A DNA stretch of 64,000 bases, from positions 1,256,644 through 1,320,643 of the forward strand of contig NZ_JAKZFS010000001.1 in NCBI RefSeq assembly GCF_022808915.1, read 5' to 3'. The position numbers were made by a program, and so were the translations under genes. The notes beneath the pieces were generated by a model that had not been told where the DNA came from, did no database searches, and saw nothing but the letters and a program-made list of their open reading frames with translations. Numbering within the stretch: position 1 is the stretch's first letter; every line of letters starts with the position of its first letter. The DNA is from Fundidesulfovibrio terrae. GTDB lineage: Bacteria; Desulfobacterota; Desulfovibrionia; Desulfovibrionales; Desulfovibrionaceae. Below are positions 2,873-44,014 of the stretch, piece after piece.

Positions 2873-5398
2873 ATGGGGTTTTTCGTTCCACAGCGCCCCA
2901 TCCGGGGCAGCCTCGTGTCGAGCTTGGGGAGCCCGTCGGGCTGGAGCATCCGCAGGAGGCTCCTGGCCGCCATCCTGCCGCTCATCACCCTCATCCTCCT
3001 GAGCGTGGGCTACGCCACCAAATGGGTGGCGGGCCGCTATCTGAGCATGGCCCTGGAGCGCACCACCAAGGTGCTCACCATGGGGCAGGCCGACGCCGTG
3101 GGGGATCTCTTCGAACAGGCCCGGCAGGACATCCTCCTGCTGGCCCGGGGCGAGAGGACCGGCGAGGCCGGGCATCGCTTCCTCTCCGTCCAGTCGCACA
3201 TCAAGTCCGGAATCTACCGCGAGGTGTCCTACATCTCCGTGGGCGGGGAAACCCAGGAATACTTCGTGGACGGCGGCCGCGAAATATGCCGGGTGGGCAA
3301 GGATTACGTTGGGAGGGTGATCAATTCCGCCGTGCTCGCCCCGTCCAGGATGGCGGAACCCCGGCTGGGAGTGGTGGCGCTCCTGGACATGGCAGAGGTG
3401 ATCTATCCGCCAGGGGTACTCCCCGACGCGGGGGCGGGGGCCACCTTCTCCGTCTTCCGGCTGGTGACGCCCGTGGCCGACCAGCAGGGCAAGATCGCCG
3501 GTTTCTGGGTCCTCTCGGTGGACGGCAGGGCCACCAGGGACATACTCTCGCTCTACAACTCTCCGAAATCCCCCCTGGCCGCCTTTCCCCGCACCGCAGA
3601 GAAACGCTACAGCTTCTTTTTCGACCGCAACGGATGGATTCTCTTCCAGTCCGGCAACATCGAGGAGCGCGAACAGCCCCTCTCCACCGACTTGGCCCGG
3701 TCCGGACTCACCGGCGACCACGGAATGCCCGGTTTCCCGGGGGCGTTCAGGCCCACCGCCGCCAACGAGGCGTACTGGCGCATGGTGGTGGACGTGCAGG
3801 CCGGGCGCACGGACATTGAAAACGTCAGTCCGGTCCTGGACCTGAACGCCGGCGGACACGACAGCTATTCCCTGGGCTTCGCCCCGGTGCTGTTCAAGAC
3901 CTATCCGGACAAGGCTCCGGAAGTCCTTGGCGGGGTTGCCTTCATGGACAAGTCGCGCCTGCTCCTTGCGGCGGACTACCGCATCTACGACGTGCTGCTG
4001 GTGATATTCATCGTGGCCCTGGCCCTGACGGTGGGCATGATCTGTGTGGTATCGCGCGTCATCACCCGGCCCATGCTGGATTTGTCCAGTGCCGTGCGGG
4101 CGATGTCCCAGGACGGGGTGCTCGAACCCATCAAGCTGCCCGATCGCGACCGCGAGACCACCTCGGTCAAGGATTCGGTGAACCATCTTCTGGAGGCCCT
4201 GCTCTTCCAAAGGGAGGAACTGCGGCTCAAGGACGCCCACATCAAGGACAACTTCCTGCGCCAGCCGCTGGACCTGGGCGAAAAGCTCTCCGCGTCCCCG
4301 GACCCGGATCCCATCGAAGGCATCATCGGGACCAGCCAGGCCATGCGCGGCCTCAAGTGGCTCATCCGCAAGGCCGCCTCGGTGGATCCGGACGTGCTCA
4401 TCATCGGCGAGACCGGCACCGGCAAGGAGGTGTCCGCCCAGGCCATCCACAAGCTTTCCCACAGGGCCAAGGGGCCGTTCATCTCCATCAACTGCGGCGC
4501 CTTGGACGAAAACCTCCTCCTGGACGCCCTGTTCGGGCATGTGAAGGGGGCCTTTTCCGAAGCCAAGGGGGAGCGCAAGGGCGCGTTCCTGGCAGCGCAG
4601 GGCGGCACGATCCTTCTCGACGAGATCGGCAACGCCTCCCCGAAGGTGCAGCAGGCGCTGTTGCGCGCCCTGGCCGCCAGGACCATCATCCCCCTGGGCA
4701 GCGACGAGGAAATTCCCTTCGACGCTCGGGTCATGGCCGCCACCAACGTGGACCTGCTGGAGTGCGTCAAGGAGGGCACATTCAGGGAGGACCTTTATTA
4801 CCGGCTGAAGGTCATCACCCTGAACGTCCCGCCCCTGCGCGAGAGGATGGAGGACATCCCCCTGCTGGTGGACGCGTTCCTGAAGGAATCCGCCAGGGTC
4901 ATGAACAAGCCATCCATGACCCTGTCCCGGGGGGCCTGGGAACGCATGACCGCCCACAACTGGCCCGGCAACGTGCGCGAGCTCAAGCACTGCCTCATGC
5001 GGGCCGTGGCCATGGCCGATTCGGACACCATCCTCGTGGAGGACCTGCGGTTCGATGCCCAGACTCCGATCACCCAGTGGAAGGCGCCGAGCGAGCCGGG
5101 CCGGGAGGACGCAGCGTCCTCGGACGAAATCCCGCGCGCCCAGCCGCAGCCGGCCCAGCGGGCGGAGCCGCCTTCCCTCGACGGACTGAGCGAACGCCAA
5201 CGGACGGGGATCGCGTATCTCCAGGAGCATGGGAGCATGTCCCGGGCGAAATACCAGGCCATCGTCGGGGAGAACGTGCCTCCCCGGACCGCGCAATACG
5301 ACTTGCGCGATCTGGTGGAACGAGGTTTGCTCACCGTGAAGGGCAAGGGCCCGGCCACGAAGTACGTGCTGGCCGGAGGGCATTCTCACGCCCGATAG
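2873..5398 (+). CDS. Membrane-bound sigma-54-dependent transcriptional activator with Cache-like sensor
   Basis: An 841-residue regulator. The ATG at 2873 is chosen because AGGAG (2861-2865) lies seven bases upstream; an in-frame GTG at 2795 would add 26 unlikely residues. Order: TM1 near residues 25-47, a large extracytoplasmic sensor of about 320 residues (Cache-like), TM2 near 372-396, a HAMP-like segment, then an AAA+ domain from about 480 with Walker A GETGTGKE, Walker B GGTILLDE and an FREDLYYRL arginine-finger region. The sigma-54 contact loop reads GAFSEA (559-564) rather than GAFTGA. The C-terminal 70 residues look like a winged helix, not the usual Fis-type helix-turn-helix. It probably senses a periplasmic signal and drives the divergent operon. 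From memory it parallels D. vulgaris DVU0151. Confidence 0.88.
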   Translation: MGFFVPQRPIRGSLVSSLGSPSGWSIRRRLLAAILPLITLILLSVGYATKWVAGRYLSMALERTTKVLTMGQADAVGDLFEQARQDILLLARGERTGEAGHRFLSVQSHIKSGIYREVSYISVGGETQEYFVDGGREICRVGKDYVGRVINSAVLAPSRMAEPRLGVVALLDMAEVIYPPGVLPDAGAGATFSVFRLVTPVADQQGKIAGFWVLSVDGRATRDILSLYNSPKSPLAAFPRTAEKRYSFFFDRNGWILFQSGNIEEREQPLSTDLARSGLTGDHGMPGFPGAFRPTAANEAYWRMVVDVQAGRTDIENVSPVLDLNAGGHDSYSLGFAPVLFKTYPDKAPEVLGGVAFMDKSRLLLAADYRIYDVLLVIFIVALALTVGMICVVSRVITRPMLDLSSAVRAMSQDGVLEPIKLPDRDRETTSVKDSVNHLLEALLFQREELRLKDAHIKDNFLRQPLDLGEKLSASPDPDPIEGIIGTSQAMRGLKWLIRKAASVDPDVLIIGETGTGKEVSAQAIHKLSHRAKGPFISINCGALDENLLLDALFGHVKGAFSEAKGERKGAFLAAQGGTILLDEIGNASPKVQQALLRALAARTIIPLGSDEEIPFDARVMAATNVDLLECVKEGTFREDLYYRLKVITLNVPPLRERMEDIPLLVDAFLKESARVMNKPSMTLSRGAWERMTAHNWPGNVRELKHCLMRAVAMADSDTILVEDLRFDAQTPITQWKAPSEPGREDAASSDEIPRAQPQPAQRAEPPSLDGLSERQRTGIAYLQEHGSMSRAKYQAIVGENVPPRTAQYDLRDLVERGLLTVKGKGPATKYVLAGGHSHAR

Positions 5399-14837: not shown

Positions 14838-15237
14838 ACGCGAAAAAGCCGCCCCCCGCCGCGAGGCGGAGGAGGCGATGGGCCGCGAACGCAGCTTGGC
14901 CATGCTCCCGGCCCGCAGCAAGCTCGTGCGCGAGGAGATCCTTGACGGCGGCGTGGTGCGCCTGACCTACCTGTCGGCCTACAAGCCGTGGTTCGCGGGG
15001 TTGGCTCGGCGCATGGGGGCCTGGGACGGCAGGCCGCTGGAGAGAAAGCTTGATCTGGACGAACTGGGCACGTTCTGCTGGAACCTGATAGACGGCGCGC
15101 GCCCGGTAAAGGACATGGCGGAGGTGCTGGCGGAGAAATACGGCCTGCCCGCCCGCGAGGCCGAACTCTCGGTGGCGGCGTTTCTGAGGGAACTGGGGAA
15201 GAGGGGGATTATAGGGTTTAGGGAGGACGAGAGCTAA
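14818..15237 (+). CDS. PqqD-family (peptide-chaperone-like) protein
   Basis: A 139-residue protein. The ATG at 14818 follows a GGAGG box about a dozen bases upstream, inside the previous gene. The N-terminal 60 residues are basic; residues about 70-135 fit the PqqD fold: a strand, then LDELGTFCWNLIDGARPV and a helical part ending in ELGKRGIIGF. PqqD domains bind precursor peptides for radical-SAM maturases, but no such maturase or small precursor gene is visible nearby. It ends the metallophosphoesterase operon. Assignment to PqqD is by pattern only. Confidence 0.72.
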   Translation: MFFARRKREKAAPRREAEEAMGRERSLAMLPARSKLVREEILDGGVVRLTYLSAYKPWFAGLARRMGAWDGRPLERKLDLDELGTFCWNLIDGARPVKDMAEVLAEKYGLPAREAELSVAAFLRELGKRGIIGFREDES

Positions 15238-15277
15238 CGCTGACACGCGATAGTGTGTTCTTTTATTTGTATATTCT

Positions 15278-16027
15278 TCATGGATTTTGGTCCATCAGTT
15301 CATTCTTTGAAATGCCTTGCGGTGTTAATATCGCTTCAAATTTGTCTCCATTTCCATGGGCACATGTAATGTCAAAATTAATTTTCACATATCTTGTGGA
15401 GTTGTAGTTATCAATATCATTGTAATTAATTGTGCAATACAACGGTCTAATGTTTGATAGTTGTTCAAAGTGCTTTGAGATGGATGACGCATATATGAAT
15501 GATGATGTTGCCAGTATGTATGCTGGAGGTATTATAATCTTGATTGCTTTTGAGTCTCTGCCGACGGGCAATAAAAAGTCAATTTTTTGATTTTTTTGAT
15601 TTCTCCATAGGGACATGCTGTGTGAGTGTTCATGGTTTATGCAGAGTGATCCGTTTTCATAGTGTAATATTTTGTTTTCGGAGTGTTGTTCGAGGATGAA
15701 ATTTGTCTCGTATGCAACTTCGCCGATGGGGAAAGACCAGGATATTTCGATATCTTTAGCTGCTCCTGATCCGATGTTATGCAGGTATAGGAATGGAAAG
15801 TTGCCGCAGCTATGTTGTTCGTCAGGATTGTTTTTCCATATATTCGGTATTTCTCCGCTTTGTTTTGTGTCTGTTGTTCCTATGATGTTAGTTCTAAAGA
15901 AAGCAATTTCTGGTTTGTGAGATGATTTTCTTTGTTTTGATATCTCTCTGACTGTGAGAAGGGTGGCAATTGCAGATACACATGTGCCAATGCTTGCGCT
16001 TATTGCGATTATTTCAGAGGTTTCCAT
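15278..16027 (-). CDS. AT-rich orphan membrane-anchored protein (foreign gene)
   Basis: A 249-residue protein with one N-terminal membrane helix (about residues 5-26) and a soluble remainder of mixed strands with many Asn, Ile, Lys and Tyr. Codon use is strongly AT-biased, unlike every flanking gene, so it was probably acquired recently. RBS AAAGGA precedes the ATG. It begins 33 bases after the purine nucleoside phosphorylase stop codon on the same strand, so it may ride on that promoter. I recognise no domain; single-helix proteins of this shape are common in mobile DNA. Confidence 0.75.
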   Translation of the reverse strand: METSEIIAISASIGTCVSAIATLLTVREISKQRKSSHKPEIAFFRTNIIGTTDTKQSGEIPNIWKNNPDEQHSCGNFPFLYLHNIGSGAAKDIEISWSFPIGEVAYETNFILEQHSENKILHYENGSLCINHEHSHSMSLWRNQKNQKIDFLLPVGRDSKAIKIIIPPAYILATSSFIYASSISKHFEQLSNIRPLYCTINYNDIDNYNSTRYVKINFDITCAHGNGDKFEAILTPQGISKNELMDQNP

Positions 16028-39570: not shown

Positions 39571-41166
39571 ATGGACCAGGCCGAGAGCTGTCCCGAGTGC
39601 GTCCTTTTCCGCGAGGACGGAGCATGGCGGGCGTCGCTTGCCGTGGACCTGCCCGACCGGCCCGGAACCCTGGCCGACATGGCCGAGCTCACGGCCGAGA
39701 GCGGGGGCAACATCGAGCGCCTGCTCTACGACCGGGGCCGCCATCCCAACCGGGTGGAAGTGTCCTTCACCTGCCTGAGCGCCGCCCGTGCGGGCACGGT
39801 GCTCGACGCCATGGACGCCCGCGGGCTTCTGGCCCCCCCGCCGCAGCAGGGGGCGGAGCCGCAGATCATAACCGACGTGGCCGGGGTCCTGAGCTTCAAG
39901 GTGGCCCTGGAGAACCGCCCTGGGGCGCTGGCCACCCTGGCGGGGCGCTTCAAGGCGTTCGGGGCCAACGTCATCCACATGCGCTACGACATCGCCTCCG
40001 ATCCGGAGATGGCCGAAGTGTCGGTGTCCACCAGCGGGGCGCGCCAGGTATCGGACCTCCTTGGCGACCTCACCCGGGCGGGCTACCACTACCACGTGCT
40101 CTGGCGCGGCGGGGAGGACGCCGACGTGGACGAGGCCCTGGGCCTCTCCGGCGTGGAGGCGTTCCTGTTCAAGCTCAGGCACGTGCTGCCGCCCGAGCGC
40201 ATGAACACCCTGGAGGAACTCTTCAGCACCTCCCAGGCCGTGCGCCAGGCCCTGGACGAGTTCCGCCACGCCTCGGGGGCCACGGGCGAAACTCTGGCCG
40301 CCTCCGAGGTATTCACCAACATCCTGCGGCTGGCGGCCATGGCCGTGGGCACCACGGGCGAGCGCTTCACCTTGCGCCTGACCGGCCCGGTGCGCCTGAC
40401 CCCGGGCGTGGTCATGTACATGCTGGCCTGCCCCGAGGGGGCCAACAGCTACCTCCTCTGCCACGACGACCGGTTCAGCATGCTGGACACCAACTTCGGG
40501 GTCTACTTCGACGACGTGGCCGCCTGGCTGGGAGCGCACGGGTTCGACCCCTCGCGCATCCGCACGGTGCTGGCCACCCATCCTGACGCGGACCACGCGG
40601 GCTGGGCCGGACGCCTGCAGGCCCTGTACGGGGCCAGGGTGCTCATGCACCCGGACGGAGCGCGGGTCTTCGCCGAGGAGGACCGCACCCTGGGCCGGGG
40701 GCCGCTGGCGGGCATCAACCGGCCCTTCACCCGGCTCGTGGGCAGGCTTTCGGGGCTGACCGCGCCGGATCATATCGACGCCTTCGAGCCCGCCACGGGC
40801 GAGTTCGGCGGATTCCCCGTGATCGGCAAGACGGCGGTAGGCGACCTGGAGCTTCTGGCCCTGGAGAGCCTGGGCGGCCACGCCGCCGGGCAGGTGTTCT
40901 ACTTCAACCCCGGGCTCGGGATTCTCTTCTCGGGCGACTACCTGCTGGACGCGGCCAGCCTGTCGCCCCGCGAGCGCGAGGCCCTGTCCGTGCACAAGTC
41001 GCTGCTCACCAGCACCAACGCCGATTCGGCGCTTTTCAGCCAGGAAATGGGCATGCTGCGCGAGCTCATGCTGCACACCGAGGCCGGGATGAAGAAAAAA
41101 GGCGGCCGCGCCAGGGTGTTCCCCGGCCACGGCGACTTCTACGCGGTGGATCAGGCCGGGTGGTGA
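39571..41166 (+). CDS. ACT-domain plus metallo-beta-lactamase-fold fusion protein
   Basis: A 531-residue protein. The ATG at 39571 has GAGGAGG eight bases upstream. Residues 15-90 and about 105-180 are two ACT domains (LPDRPGTLADMAELTAESGGNI; LENRPGALATLAGRFKAFGANV), which normally bind amino acids. Residues about 285-525 fit the metallo-beta-lactamase fold: THPDADHAGW, GGHAAGQVFYF, FSGDYLLD and FPGHGDF. The first motif is HPDADH rather than HxHxDH, so the second metal ligand is Asp. The combination suggests an amino-acid-regulated hydrolase or oxidoreductase of unknown substrate. Confidence 0.82.
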   Translation: MDQAESCPECVLFREDGAWRASLAVDLPDRPGTLADMAELTAESGGNIERLLYDRGRHPNRVEVSFTCLSAARAGTVLDAMDARGLLAPPPQQGAEPQIITDVAGVLSFKVALENRPGALATLAGRFKAFGANVIHMRYDIASDPEMAEVSVSTSGARQVSDLLGDLTRAGYHYHVLWRGGEDADVDEALGLSGVEAFLFKLRHVLPPERMNTLEELFSTSQAVRQALDEFRHASGATGETLAASEVFTNILRLAAMAVGTTGERFTLRLTGPVRLTPGVVMYMLACPEGANSYLLCHDDRFSMLDTNFGVYFDDVAAWLGAHGFDPSRIRTVLATHPDADHAGWAGRLQALYGARVLMHPDGARVFAEEDRTLGRGPLAGINRPFTRLVGRLSGLTAPDHIDAFEPATGEFGGFPVIGKTAVGDLELLALESLGGHAAGQVFYFNPGLGILFSGDYLLDAASLSPREREALSVHKSLLTSTNADSALFSQEMGMLRELMLHTEAGMKKKGGRARVFPGHGDFYAVDQAGW

Positions 41167-41225
41167 CGCCCGATACGAGGGGTGGAATATATGGTGGTAA
41201 GAGTTCCGTGGTGTCGATTTTTCAT

Positions 41226-41254
41226 TTGTTATTTCGTTTTAATTTTGCAATAAT
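41226..41254 (+). promoter_or_regulatory. Sigma-70-like promoter of the AT-rich module
   Basis: TTGTTA (41226-41231) and AATAAT (41249-41254) are separated by 17 bases, giving four and five of six matches to the consensus. It precedes the ribosome site and ATG of the broken first gene by about 40 bases. Confidence 0.5.
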
Positions 41255-41295
41255 CGGTGCATCACTCGAATATTTTGAGAGGTGGAGGGATAGTA

Positions 41296-42249
41296 ATGCT
41301 GGATCAAAAGACAAGGAAGTTATTGTATTTTGATATGACGATCACGTCGTTACCTGAAGATGGAGATTTTGATGCTTTTACCTTTTCCGAGACGCTTGAG
41401 GTTTTATTGAAGTAATTTAAGGATGGTGAAACGTTTAAGTATCTTAAAAAGCGGACTGCAGCTATGCGCATTAGGGATTTTATTGTTGATGAAGATGGTG
41501 GTGCAGTAACGCTCCTAATAAATTATTCTGATAAAAATGTTAGCAATCCTGTCTTTGAAAATCTGGAGACAGGCGACTTGAGAGAAGAGCCTAAGCTTGC
41601 TGGTGAGGGTGTAGCTGTTTCTGTGCACTTGGTCATCTCGATGAGTGATAGTAAGTCTGGAGGGAATCTCGCAGTTTTAGAGTGTATTCCTGGTGTTGGT
41701 CGAGGGTTAATTGGGCCGTTCATTAATTATTTGCTTCGGAAAGGAAGCAATTATACTTTTAAGAATGAAAATGGTGTAGATCAAAAATGCAGGCCGAAAG
41801 TTTATTTTGAAGCTCTTGCGTCACAAGAATTAAAAGACGATTTAGACAACGGTGCTTTAAAGGAATTTCAACTGGTAAAATATAAGAAAGCGATCAAAGA
41901 CTTTGATCAAGATGATGAAATTGAACCTCTGTCCTCGACCGTGGCTTTGTCGGTTAAGAAGGCATTTAAAAGTGATGCAGCGTTTTCATTGATGGATAGA
42001 ATTAGGAAAAAAGGGAAGAAGGAAGGGTATTCAGAGATTCGTGTACGTCTTAAAAATAAGTGGGGGAAAGAGAGGACCATTAGTTTTGGTGTGAGTAAAA
42101 ATGATGCACAAAGCATTGCTTACGGAAAATATGATTTTGTTTCAACAGCTGAGGTGATTAAGCAGTGTACGCATGAAATTCATGGTGAATTGAATAAAAA
42201 GATGAAAAAAATGTTGATGAAGGAAGTTAGTAGGGAAGGTGAGTCATGA
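41296..42249 (+). pseudogene. RexA-like soluble protein gene, interrupted by an in-frame TAA
   Basis: The ATG at 41296 has a strong GGAGG (41284-41288) seven bases upstream. The frame runs 39 codons, meets TAA at 41413-41415, then continues open in the same frame to 42249. Without the stop the product would be 317 residues; from the next ATG (41464, no ribosome site) it is 261. It is a soluble alpha/beta protein with many Lys residues; segments near LAVLECIPGVGRGLIGPFINYLL and the charged C-terminal helices resemble in layout the 279-residue lambda RexA. The stop is either a real inactivating mutation or a sequencing error; a single change such as CAA to TAA would explain it. The homology is a layout-level inference only. 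Confidence 0.6.
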
Positions 42250-42848
42250 AGACCGTGTTTTCAAGATTGTTTAGAGTTGTTGATTATTTGCGTGTGACTC
42301 ACGAATCCAAATATAAATATGATTTTGTCGCTCCGCTAGTGTTGGCAATCGTTATGGTGGCATTATATGTAATATTACCTGCAAAGCCAAAATTGGTAGG
42401 TGCGGACGGGTTGATTGTAAAGATTAATGGTCTCCTTCAAATCTTGCCAGGATTTTATATCGCAGCATTGGCTGCAATTTCTACGTTCAACAAGAGTAAC
42501 ATGGATGAGCCGATGACGGGTACGCCGCCGAGGCTTGTGACGCATTATAGAAACAAGCCTGAGCAATTGTCGAGAAGGCGGTTTTTGTGCTTGATGTTTG
42601 GGTATCTTTCGGCGTTGTCAATTATCATTTGTGGGTTGAGTTCTGTCGTTGATGTAGGCGTTAATAATTTAAAAATTTTCATTCTGGATGAGAATGTTTT
42701 TGCATATGTTAAGTTAGTATTTATGTTTATATTTTCATTTATGATTTCAAATTTGTTTGTTACTACATTTCTTGGGCTGTATTATTTGTCTGATAGAATT
42801 CATAGGGAAAAGCGAGAAAAAACGAATTATAATAACAATGCTGAATAG
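42246..42848 (+). CDS. Four-helix membrane protein of the AT-rich module (RexB-like layout)
   Basis: A 200-residue AT-rich gene overlapping the preceding gene by four bases (ATGA) with GGAAGGTGAG upstream. Four membrane helices are visible, near residues 27-48, 60-80, 111-133 and 153-180, with short loops and basic ends. A small four-helix membrane protein translated from a soluble partner is the organisation of lambda RexAB, in which RexB depolarises the membrane on phage attack. No sequence-level relation to RexB is claimed. If the upstream gene is dead, this gene may be an orphan. Confidence 0.7.
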   Translation: MKTVFSRLFRVVDYLRVTHESKYKYDFVAPLVLAIVMVALYVILPAKPKLVGADGLIVKINGLLQILPGFYIAALAAISTFNKSNMDEPMTGTPPRLVTHYRNKPEQLSRRRFLCLMFGYLSALSIIICGLSSVVDVGVNNLKIFILDENVFAYVKLVFMFIFSFMISNLFVTTFLGLYYLSDRIHREKREKTNYNNNAE

Positions 42849-42865
42849 TTTGGATTGTGCATTTG

Positions 42866-44014
42866 TTATGTGTGTATGATTGGACAAGGTTTGCTTACGC
42901 CTTGAATGGCGGCCAGCGCGTCGCACCGGAGCTGCCTGAGCATCTCCCCTGACGCCTCGCCCAGGTCCTTCTTGTCGTCCGGCAGCCTGACCTTGAGGAT
43001 CACGCGTAGGTCGCGCCGGGCCTGGCGCAGGGTGTCCTCGTCCGCCTGGCGCTTGTCGGCTGCGGCCAGCCGGAACATGCGCGCGGTGAGCTTCTTGGCC
43101 TCCAGGCGCACGAGCAGGTCCACCTTGGTGCCAGGGCGCAGTTCGGCGTAGCGGCCAGCGAGCATGTGCTCGGCCGAGGCGGCCATGCCCGCCTCCATGA
43201 AGACCCGCGGTTGGCGAAGGCGAAGGGCCAACTCCCGGGCAGGCGCGACGCCGGTCCTGTCGTGCCCGTGGTGGGCGGGCCACTCCTCGCGGGGAGTAGT
43301 CGCCTTGCCCAGGTCGTGGGCCAGGGCCATCCAGGCGAGCAGGGCGTCTCCTGCCAGCCGGTCCATCACCTCGCAGGCGTGGTCGAACACGTCCTTGTCG
43401 TGGTAGGCGGGAGGCCCGGCAGGCACCCCCACGCAGGCCGCCAGCTCCTCGAACCAGGGCAGGAGGCAGTCCGCCTTCGCCAAAAGAGTGAAAAAGCGAG
43501 ACGGCACCGGCGCGCAAAGGGCCTTGGACACCTCACGCCCCACGCGTTCGGCCGCGTGGCCGGCCAGAAGCCCCTGTTGGGCTGCGCTGCGCATCTGGTC
43601 CAGAAGCTCTGGGCTAGGAGAAAAGTCCGGGAACTGGGCCGCGAAGCGCGCCGCCCGGAAGACCCGCACCGGGTCGTCGGTGAGCGAGGTGGGCGAACAG
43701 GGGCGCAGGATTTTCGCTTGGAGGTCGTGCAGGGCCTGGGGGTGGGCGCGCAGGAGCCCCTTCTCGTCCAGGGCCATGGCGTTCACGGTCAGGTCGCGCA
43801 GTTCCAGGTCGCGTTCGAGCGAGCCGCCGCGCGGCCAAGCATATTCGCTCCCGTCCAGGATAACCACCGGAAATGACTTGCCGACAAGGCGGGCCGTGGG
43901 ATACCGCCCAAGAAACGAAGCGTGGTCGGCGTGGTCGACGAGGTAATCGCGGTCGGTGACGGTCCTTCCGAGCAGGAGGTCGCGCACCGCGCCGCCAACC
44001 AGGTATATTTCCAT
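42866..44014 (-). CDS. cca: CCA-adding enzyme / tRNA nucleotidyltransferase with HD domain
   Basis: A 382-residue protein with the class II nucleotidyltransferase start YLVGGAVRDLLLG, the DRD metal site, and RDLTVNAMALD and DDPVRVFRAARFAAQF motifs, followed by an HD phosphohydrolase-type domain (AHDLGKAT). It adds or repairs the 3-prime CCA of tRNAs, as E. coli Cca. The ATG at 44014 gives the family start; no good ribosome site is seen. It is divergent from birA with 15 bases between. The last few codons lie in the AT-rich island, so its C-terminus was probably altered by the insertion. Confidence 0.9.
   Translation of the reverse strand: MEIYLVGGAVRDLLLGRTVTDRDYLVDHADHASFLGRYPTARLVGKSFPVVILDGSEYAWPRGGSLERDLELRDLTVNAMALDEKGLLRAHPQALHDLQAKILRPCSPTSLTDDPVRVFRAARFAAQFPDFSPSPELLDQMRSAAQQGLLAGHAAERVGREVSKALCAPVPSRFFTLLAKADCLLPWFEELAACVGVPAGPPAYHDKDVFDHACEVMDRLAGDALLAWMALAHDLGKATTPREEWPAHHGHDRTGVAPARELALRLRQPRVFMEAGMAASAEHMLAGRYAELRPGTKVDLLVRLEAKKLTARMFRLAAADKRQADEDTLRQARRDLRVILKVRLPDDKKDLGEASGEMLRQLRCDALAAIQGVSKPCPIIHT

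What the first reader, a model, noticed from the sequence alone, without database searches (positions are those of the whole stretch)
41167..42865. RexAB-like two-gene module on an AT-rich island, with the first gene broken by a single stop
A soluble Lys-rich protein gene (41296-42249) and a four-helix membrane protein gene (42246-42848) overlap by ATGA behind one promoter-like site. The layout matches the RexAB type of abortive infection. The in-frame TAA at 41413-41415 separates a good ribosome site and 39 codons from the rest, so the module may be freshly inactivated, or the stop may be a sequencing error. If intact in relatives it could be a phage-defence system distantly related to or convergent with RexAB.
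Basis: partly seen in the sequence, partly recalled or inferred. Interest (0 to 1): 0.78.

Follow-up and report, generated by a model that had tools for sequence, protein, structure and literature searches.

The report
RexAB-type phage defence, sensor gene broken
This is a foreign two-gene phage-defence cassette of the same family as a recently tested system in Pseudomonas putida, but its first (sensor) gene carries a premature stop, so this copy is probably switched off.

Summary
Gene A (41296-42249), with an in-frame TAA at 41413-41415, overlaps membrane-protein gene B (42246-42848) by ATGA on a 1.7-kb, 38% GC island. The stop is internal: homology extends upstream of it to the first codon.

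Both genes belong to PADLOC candidate family PDC-M53 (A 122 bits with X at the stop; B E 4e-50). A lies before B in 148 of 157 related loci outside the model (many are near-identical prophages). A viral contig that fits P. putida RexABpp (6 of 7 published residue positions) falls in the same family, and RexABpp is an experimentally shown defence system. So "RexAB-like" is supported.

An AlphaFold model of an intact A homologue matches lambda RexA best (8TWQ, Z 8.3), then kinetochore CENP-N/Iml3 chains and RdgC. By sequence neither gene matches lambda RexA or RexB: RexAB-type, not a lambda RexAB orthologue.

Mechanism (inferred): A senses phage DNA complexes and triggers B, which damages the membrane and stops growth. 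Here A is broken and the assembly holds no second copy, so the module is probably inert; a sequencing error is not excluded. New member of a known kind; the tie RexABpp = PDC-M53 was not found in the papers searched.

The parts
41167..42890 (.). AT-rich island holding only the two genes, inserted between two convergent genes; right edge approximate (the CCA-enzyme tail differs from congeners in about its last 12 residues)
   Evidence: GC 0.378; two congeners have 25 and 69 bases between the coding matches of the same two genes, others carry different DNA there
41226..41254 (+). promoter-like site, TTGTTA-17-AATAAT with TG before the second hexamer
   Evidence: not above shuffled expectation
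41284..41288 (+). ribosome-binding site GGAGG for gene A
   Evidence: sequence
41296..42249 (+). gene A, RexA-type sensor (PDC-M53A), 317 codons before its own stop, broken by one in-frame stop
   Evidence: fold of homologue L032 A:
41413..41415 (+). premature TAA, codon 40 of gene A
41464..41466 (+). first in-frame ATG/GTG/TTG after the stop; no clear ribosome site; a product from here lacks the first 56 residues
   Evidence: elements E6-17, H28-40 and E45-48 of the homologue model would be lost
42246..42848 (+). gene B, RexB-type four-helix membrane effector (PDC-M53B), 200 aa, intact
42486..42572 (+). B residues 81-109, predicted loop between membrane helices 2 and 3; D87 (87 of 93) lies in it, R111 (93 of 93) just after it
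41211..41232 (+). left copy of an imperfect 22-nt direct repeat (82% identical) that brackets the two genes; may be chance
42848..42869 (+). right copy of the same repeat

Best explanation
It is a horizontally acquired two-gene abortive-infection module of the RexABpp type (PADLOC PDC-M53). In intact relatives gene A makes a two-domain protein of the RexA/RdgC/CENP-N fold that clamps DNA and senses a phage replication intermediate or a phage protein on DNA. When activated, A switches on B, a four-helix oligomeric inner-membrane protein, which damages the membrane and halts growth, so the phage fails. Without A, B is mute. In this genome A has a stop at codon 40, so only a 39-residue peptide, or at most a product lacking the first 56 residues, is made. 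B remains intact but without a trigger, so this copy most likely gives no defence. Shown here: family membership, gene order, the internal stop, the predicted fold of an intact homologue, insertion at a variable site, no second copy in the assembly. Shown by others for RexABpp: defence needs both genes, A binds DNA, excess A causes B-dependent growth arrest and leakage of a subpopulation (without measurable depolarisation). Inferred: what A senses, that this member worked the same way, and that it is now off.
For: HMMs: A 122.5 bits to PDLC04696, B E 3.9e-50 to PDLC04699; PHROGs 16499 and 8257. A is detected with B in 156 of 165 loci found by B, 148 of 157 without the model's own members; 142 of 156 pairs lie -14 to +15 bases apart. 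L214 B carries W25, F35, L55, S145, G153, Y181 as published for RexBpp (6 of 7 positions; the T is at 102 instead of 103); of 33,000 shuffled family B proteins one reached 5 and none 6, and no other of 165 family members exceeded 5. L214 A and B score 518.7 and 240.5 bits against PDC-M53A and B; window B is 28% identical to L214 B (E 1e-24) and window A 23% to L214 A (E 3e-8). Fold: 8TWQ Z 8.3, then nine inner-kinetochore entries 6.8-6.1, then RdgC 5.7 and 5.6, the relatives that the RexA structure paper reports (PMC11077077). B: the top viral-structure match is a 165-aa Sbash protein, the length of Sbash gp31, its RexB-like effector. RexABpp biology: PMC12894663. No second A or B in the assembly.
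Against: No experiment on this member. The fold was predicted for a homologue 32% identical to window A, not for window A itself. Foldseek alone gave no PDB match at E <= 0.001, and Z 8.3 is only just above the level (7 to 8) that the tool gives as typical for models without a clear match. The Sbash match of B is weak (E 0.19) and tied to gp31 by length only. Sequence profiles do not link to lambda RexA or RexB. L214 was reached through its similarity to L070, which already had 5 of the 7 positions. The stop could be a base-call error.
Confidence: 0.8

Rival explanations
1. The module is active in this host: the stop is a sequencing error, or a shortened A made from 41464 still works.
For: The rest of A is open, and the four nearly invariant family positions (R7, L72, G103, H109) are kept, read by eye in the alignment. 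One base could do it. There is an in-frame ATG at 41464.
Against: Neighbouring long genes are uninterrupted (1233 and 1187 aa), so the assembly is not generally error-ridden. No clear ribosome site before 41464 (by eye). The lost part holds the first strand and helix of the model. A Halomonas member has the same kind of break.
Confidence: 0.25
2. The roles are reversed, as reported for phage Butters: A is the antiviral effector and B only restrains it.
For: Such a Rex-like system is described in the Discussion of PMC12894663.
Against: In RexABpp, taken as a member of the same family, growth arrest by A needs B: of 38 suppressors 30 lost the prophage, 7 mutated rexB and 1 lost the A cassette; both genes are needed for defence.
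Confidence: 0.07
3. It is an accessory prophage gene pair that tunes the lysis-lysogeny switch rather than defends the host.
For: Many relatives sit in viral contigs (137 matches, 80 kept; SfII between S and Q). Lambda RexA biases the bistable switch (PMC11077077 abstract).
Against: Relatives also sit on plasmid records, though I did not test these for phage genes, and here between chromosomal genes without a repressor beside it; deleting either RexABpp gene lowers phage resistance.
Confidence: 0.08
4. It is an orthologue of lambda RexAB itself.
For: Shared predicted A fold, shared layout.
Against: No hit to Pfam RexA/RexB (A tested as the 261-aa ORF only) or PADLOC RexA/RexB at E <= 1, while lambda RexA and RexB score 326.8 and 305.4 bits in Pfam and 364.3 and 202.4 in PADLOC. 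Profile comparison: RexA 2.4% probability, RexB 0.6%, with shallow target profiles.
Confidence: 0.05

Closest known systems
RexABpp, PP_5643-5644, Pseudomonas putida prophage P1 (PMC12894663)
   Same: Same PADLOC families for both genes, same order, about 28% (B) and 23% (A) identity (locus L214)
   Different: Lies in a prophage downstream of a CI-like repressor; both genes intact and shown to defend
PADLOC PDC-M53 (phage defence candidate)
   Same: Both models matched over nearly their whole length
   Different: A is broken here; the library gives the family no function
Lambda RexAB (Pfam PF15969, PF15968; RexA structure 8TWQ)
   Same: Two-gene layout, RexA-like fold predicted for A, four-helix membrane protein in B
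   Different: No significant sequence relation; family A mostly 306-376 aa against 279, B mostly 182-210 against 144 (starts picked by script); here no cI neighbour
Sbash gp30/gp31 and CarolAnn gp44/gp43 (PMC6426596)
   Same: Overlapping sensor/four-helix pair; the top viral-structure match of B is a 165-aa Sbash protein, the length of gp31; R70 and D73 of gp31, needed for defence, lie in the loop between helices 2 and 3, where B has conserved D87
   Different: No sequence-profile relation; actinobacteriophages
Shigella phage SfII genes 50/49 (L004)
   Same: Intact pair, A then B, 36% identity to window B
   Different: Phage cargo between S and Q; function not annotated

Membership tests
RexABpp type / PADLOC PDC-M53 | Gene A matches the PDC-M53A model over its length | tested here: met
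   PDLC04696 4-318 of 320, 122.5 bits, read with X at the stop
RexABpp type / PADLOC PDC-M53 | Gene B matches the PDC-M53B model | tested here: met
   PDLC04699 2-186 of 188, E 3.9e-50
RexABpp type / PADLOC PDC-M53 | RexABpp itself falls in PDC-M53 | tested here: met
   L214, taken as RexABpp by 6 of 7 published residue positions, scores 518.7 and 240.5 bits. That IMG taxon 637000222 is P. putida KT2440 is recalled, from no call
RexABpp type / PADLOC PDC-M53 | A directly upstream of B on the same strand | tested here: met
   ATGA overlap; A found with B in 148 of 157 loci outside the model, not all independent
RexABpp type / PADLOC PDC-M53 | A has a RexA-like two-domain fold | tested here: met
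   On intact homologue L032 A only: pLDDT 92.2, 8TWQ Z 8.3, rmsd 12.3, 197 aligned; window A itself was not folded
RexABpp type / PADLOC PDC-M53 | B has four membrane helices | tested here: met
   Model segments 22-43, 56-64 plus 67-80, 110-145, 149-198; hydropathy
RexABpp type / PADLOC PDC-M53 | Both genes open | tested here: not met
   TAA at 41413-41415; so a broken member
RexABpp type / PADLOC PDC-M53 | DNA binding, A-triggered B toxicity, phage defence | not testable with these tools
   Wet-lab; known for RexABpp (PMC12894663)
Lambda RexAB | A matches RexA models | tested here: not met
   No hit at E <= 1 in Pfam (ORF from 41464) or PADLOC; profile comparison 2.4%
Lambda RexAB | B matches RexB models | tested here: not met
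   No hit at E <= 1; profile comparison 0.6%
Lambda RexAB | Lies beside a cI-type repressor in an immunity region | tested here: not met
   Flanked by an MBL/ACT-domain gene and a gene that reads by eye as a CCA-adding enzyme
Sbash gp30/gp31 type | Relation of A and B to gp30 and gp31 | tested here: inconclusive
   Profiles not significant; structure match of B to a 165-aa Sbash protein, prob 0.84, E 0.19
SieB (Pfam PF14163) | B matches the SieB model | tested here: not met
   12.9 bits, cut-off 26

The most novel reading that the evidence does not exclude
PDC-M53, lambda RexAB and the actinophage gp30/gp31 pairs are one ancient superfamily: an RdgC/CENP-N-fold DNA clamp that gates a four-helix membrane effector through the loop between its helices 2 and 3. 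RexAB-type defence, of which five systems are counted in PMC12894663, is then widespread (76 loci in bacterial species genomes and 137 matches in viral contigs here), and loss of the clamp gene is a recurrent way to disarm it while the effector persists.
Probability: 0.45. Interest if true: 0.6.

Novelty: new member of a known kind. Interest (0 to 1): 0.42.

Why it matters
The Discussion of PMC12894663 counts five RexAB-like systems. Tying RexABpp to PDC-M53 and PHROGs 16499/8257 gives a candidate function to a broad, uncharacterised family carried by phages, plasmids and chromosomes, and supplies many natural variants for the old question of what RexA senses and how it opens RexB. The window's copy adds a natural case of an effector left without its sensor.

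Tried and rejected
Direct membership in lambda RexAB: rejected at sequence level. Sbash-type by sequence: no support; Pfam finds nothing in Sbash gp30/gp31, nor does PADLOC. SieB: 12.9 bits, below cut-off. 'Homologues start at 41464': rejected. A second copy in the assembly (96.84% complete): none. PDB sequence searches with A or B profiles: no RexA hit. Foldseek on the PDB with the A model: no match at E <= 0.001 and RexA not among the 50 rows shown; RexA appeared only in the VIA-align second look. VIA-align of B against the PDB gave helical-bundle matches up to Z 8.4 (PA28 and others), below the level that the tool calls telling for helical bundles; no meaning drawn. Lambda RexB is not named among the 50 rows of the B search in viral structures. 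Neither RexA nor Sbash gp30 is named among the 50 rows of the A search in viral structures; its four strong hits (E 1.8e-13 to 2.0e-9) are uncharacterised phage proteins that I did not follow. Scan of viral contigs with window B alone: no relative; with L032 A alone: none. A fingerprint search for RexABpp in 398 genomes of one genus group gave six B matches, best 5 of 7 positions. An asymmetry test (A lost more often than B) was not made: all loci were found through B, so intact B is favoured. Of 185 loci A is intact in 170, in pieces in 3 (L107, L116, L167), short in 3 (L010, L029, L055), cut by a contig end in 4, undetected with room upstream in 3 (L031, L050, L062) and undetected without room in 2; B is incomplete in 2 (L035, L167). 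The flanking direct repeat is kept only as a lead. Literature: 'PDC-M53' found in no paper; PP_5643/PP_5644 only in PMC12894663 apart from two unrelated platelet papers; a search combining RexA, RexB, PDC-M and PADLOC gave one paper, on Thermus phages, listing only seen. 'Not found in print' rests on these searches of an open-licence library without preprints. Papers: PMC12894663, abstract, sections 7, 8, 11 and 12, and passages; PMC11077077, abstract, outline and passages; PMC6426596, passages; all others, search listing only.

Full report
Observation. The island has 37.8% GC in surroundings that are mostly 60-72%. The promoter-like site is there, but such sites are not commoner in the region than in shuffles.

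The stop is inside a gene. Reading A with X at the stop raises the PADLOC score from 108 to 122 bits and extends the match from model position 58 to position 4. I gave BLAST 148 A homologues of at least 295 aa: 145 align at E <= 10, 80 of these alignments span the stop, and 23 of the 25 best pair first residue with first residue. Homologue starts were chosen by script, so the residue-1 agreement is partly built in; the homology of the first 56 residues and the PADLOC match are not. The first start codon after the stop is ATG 41464. The rest of A and all of B are open. The assembly has no second copy of either.

Family. Both proteins belong to PDC-M53, a PADLOC phage-defence candidate, and to PHROGs 16499 and 8257 of unknown function. 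Pfam and NCBIfam give nothing above cut-off; there A was given as the 261-aa ORF. tblastn with B finds 6 phage records and 7 plasmid records: Shigella phage SfII (two records), Salmonella phage F1055, two Vibrio elements with a PM2-like capsid protein, Moraxella phage Mcat23, and plasmids of Salmonella, Acinetobacter, Sulfitobacter, Microvirga and uncultured bacteria. An alignment of ten B proteins then found 76 loci in bacterial contigs and 137 in viral contigs, 80 of them kept. An A gene is detected in 156 of 165 loci; without the eight loci used for the A model it is 148 of 157. Many viral loci are near-identical prophages, so these are not independent counts. In 142 of 156 pairs the genes lie -14 to +15 bases apart; the three gaps above 400 bases belong to split A genes. 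In the window's bacterial family 3 of 288 genomes have B, in a sample of its phylum 1 of 395, the window's own, and both other family members, L206 and L207, have an intact A in front of it. SfII-type DNA occurs in 9 of 5426 E. coli genomes at near identity.

Link to a tested system. PMC12894663 shows that P. putida prophage genes PP_5643-5644 (RexABpp) are both needed for defence against phages, that RexApp binds DNA non-specifically, and that excess RexApp causes RexBpp-dependent growth arrest and membrane leakage in a subpopulation, without measurable depolarisation. A and B did not interact in its two-hybrid test. The paper lists RexBpp changes at W25, F35, L55, T103, S145, G153 and Y181. 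Among 165 family B proteins the best, L070, had five of the seven. A scan with L070 B returned viral contig IMGVR_UViG_637000222_000004 (L214), whose B has six of the seven, the T being one place earlier. Of 33,000 shuffled family B proteins one reached five and none six. An open frame upstream reads by eye as a CI/LexA-type repressor, as the paper describes for its locus. I take L214 to be RexABpp. That IMG taxon 637000222 is P. putida KT2440 is recalled. L214 A and B score 518.7 and 240.5 bits against PDC-M53A and B. Window B is 28% identical to L214 B (E 1e-24) and window A 23% to L214 A (E 3e-8).

Fold. AlphaFold2 of the intact homologue L032 A (32% identical to window A) on an 80-sequence alignment gave pLDDT 92.2 and pTM 0.85. 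VIA-align ranks lambda RexA (8TWQ) first of 996 chains: Z 8.3, 197 residues, rmsd 12.3. Then come nine inner-kinetochore entries (Z 6.8 to 6.1; Iml3 and CENP-N are named, chain N of the others is Chl4 or CENP-N from recall) and two RdgC entries (5.7, 5.6). RdgC, IML3 and CHL4 are the relatives that the RexA structure paper reports (PMC11077077), so the list is coherent even though each Z is moderate; that the large rmsd reflects a domain shift is my inference. The P. putida paper found 8TWQ with Z 8.8 for PP_5643. Foldseek by itself did not show RexA. Window B gave pLDDT 93.0. Its top match among viral structures is a 165-aa Sbash protein (prob 0.84, E 0.19), and Sbash gp31, the RexB-like effector, is 165 aa; the identification rests on that length. 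Changing R70 or D73 of gp31, between helices 2 and 3, abolishes defence (PMC6426596). In the window's family D87 (87 of 93) lies in the matching loop and R111 (93 of 93) just after it. The correspondence is suggestive, not shown, and sequence profiles do not support it.

Surroundings. The module lies between two convergent genes, an MBL/ACT-domain gene and a gene that I read as a CCA-adding enzyme. Six congeners have the first gene. Two have the two genes' matches 25 and 69 bases apart (G480, G441). Two carry a 2.3-kb low-GC gene in reverse, reading by eye as a response regulator-PAS-histidine kinase (G491, G502). One has 2.5 kb of normal GC (G463). One has another low-GC insert and no CCA match within the fetched 5 kb (G403). 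Two more distant genomes (G421, G407) also show no CCA match in the fetched stretch. So this is a variable site and the module is an arrival without an integrase of its own. A 22-nt imperfect direct repeat brackets it, which may be chance.

State of this copy. With A stopped at codon 40, RexABpp genetics predicts loss of defence, and B without A is not toxic there. Breaks of A with B intact occur elsewhere: Halomonas L055 has a single in-frame stop, L107 an insertion of about 1.2 kb and L116 a frame break; in L167 both genes are affected. Since loci were found through B, no claim of asymmetry is made. A base-call error cannot be excluded without reads.

Verdict. A new, broken member of a known kind. 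What may be new is the tie between RexABpp and the broad PDC-M53 family, not found in the papers searched.

Noticed in passing
window 15278-16027, minus strand: A second AT-rich island (GC 0.44 in 15001-16000) with one 249-aa protein, hydrophobic at its start by eye, in an intergenic space; no Pfam match at E <= 0.01 and no PADLOC match at E <= 1.
   Followed up: partly
window 41166-42890 and loci L179-L184: The space between the MBL/ACT gene and the CCA-adding enzyme is a variable cargo site in the genus: empty in two congeners, different DNA in four.
   Followed up: partly
L183:1695-2363 (minus): After the same MBL/ACT gene a congener carries a low-GC protein with a weak match to PADLOC PDC-S14 (E 0.0015), so the site may collect defence genes.
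   Followed up: no
L055:4989-5996: Halomonas sp. S3-1-1 has the same kind of break: one in-frame stop at 5214 in gene A, gene B intact.
   Followed up: partly
L107:4377-5557: About 1.2 kb of DNA interrupts gene A of a near-identical prophage copy; probably an insertion sequence.
   Followed up: no
L003:11436-13002 and L006:11753-13298: Two small Vibrio cyclitrophicus elements with a PM2-like capsid protein carry the intact pair near one end, next to a putative integrase in L006.
   Followed up: no
BFVD A0A8S5S8L2, A0A8S5MSR5, A0A6J5Q1Z2, A0A8S5QGP5: Four uncharacterised phage proteins have strong structural matches to the A model (E 1.8e-13 to 2.0e-9) at 10-13% identity: perhaps further RexA-like sensors.
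   Followed up: no
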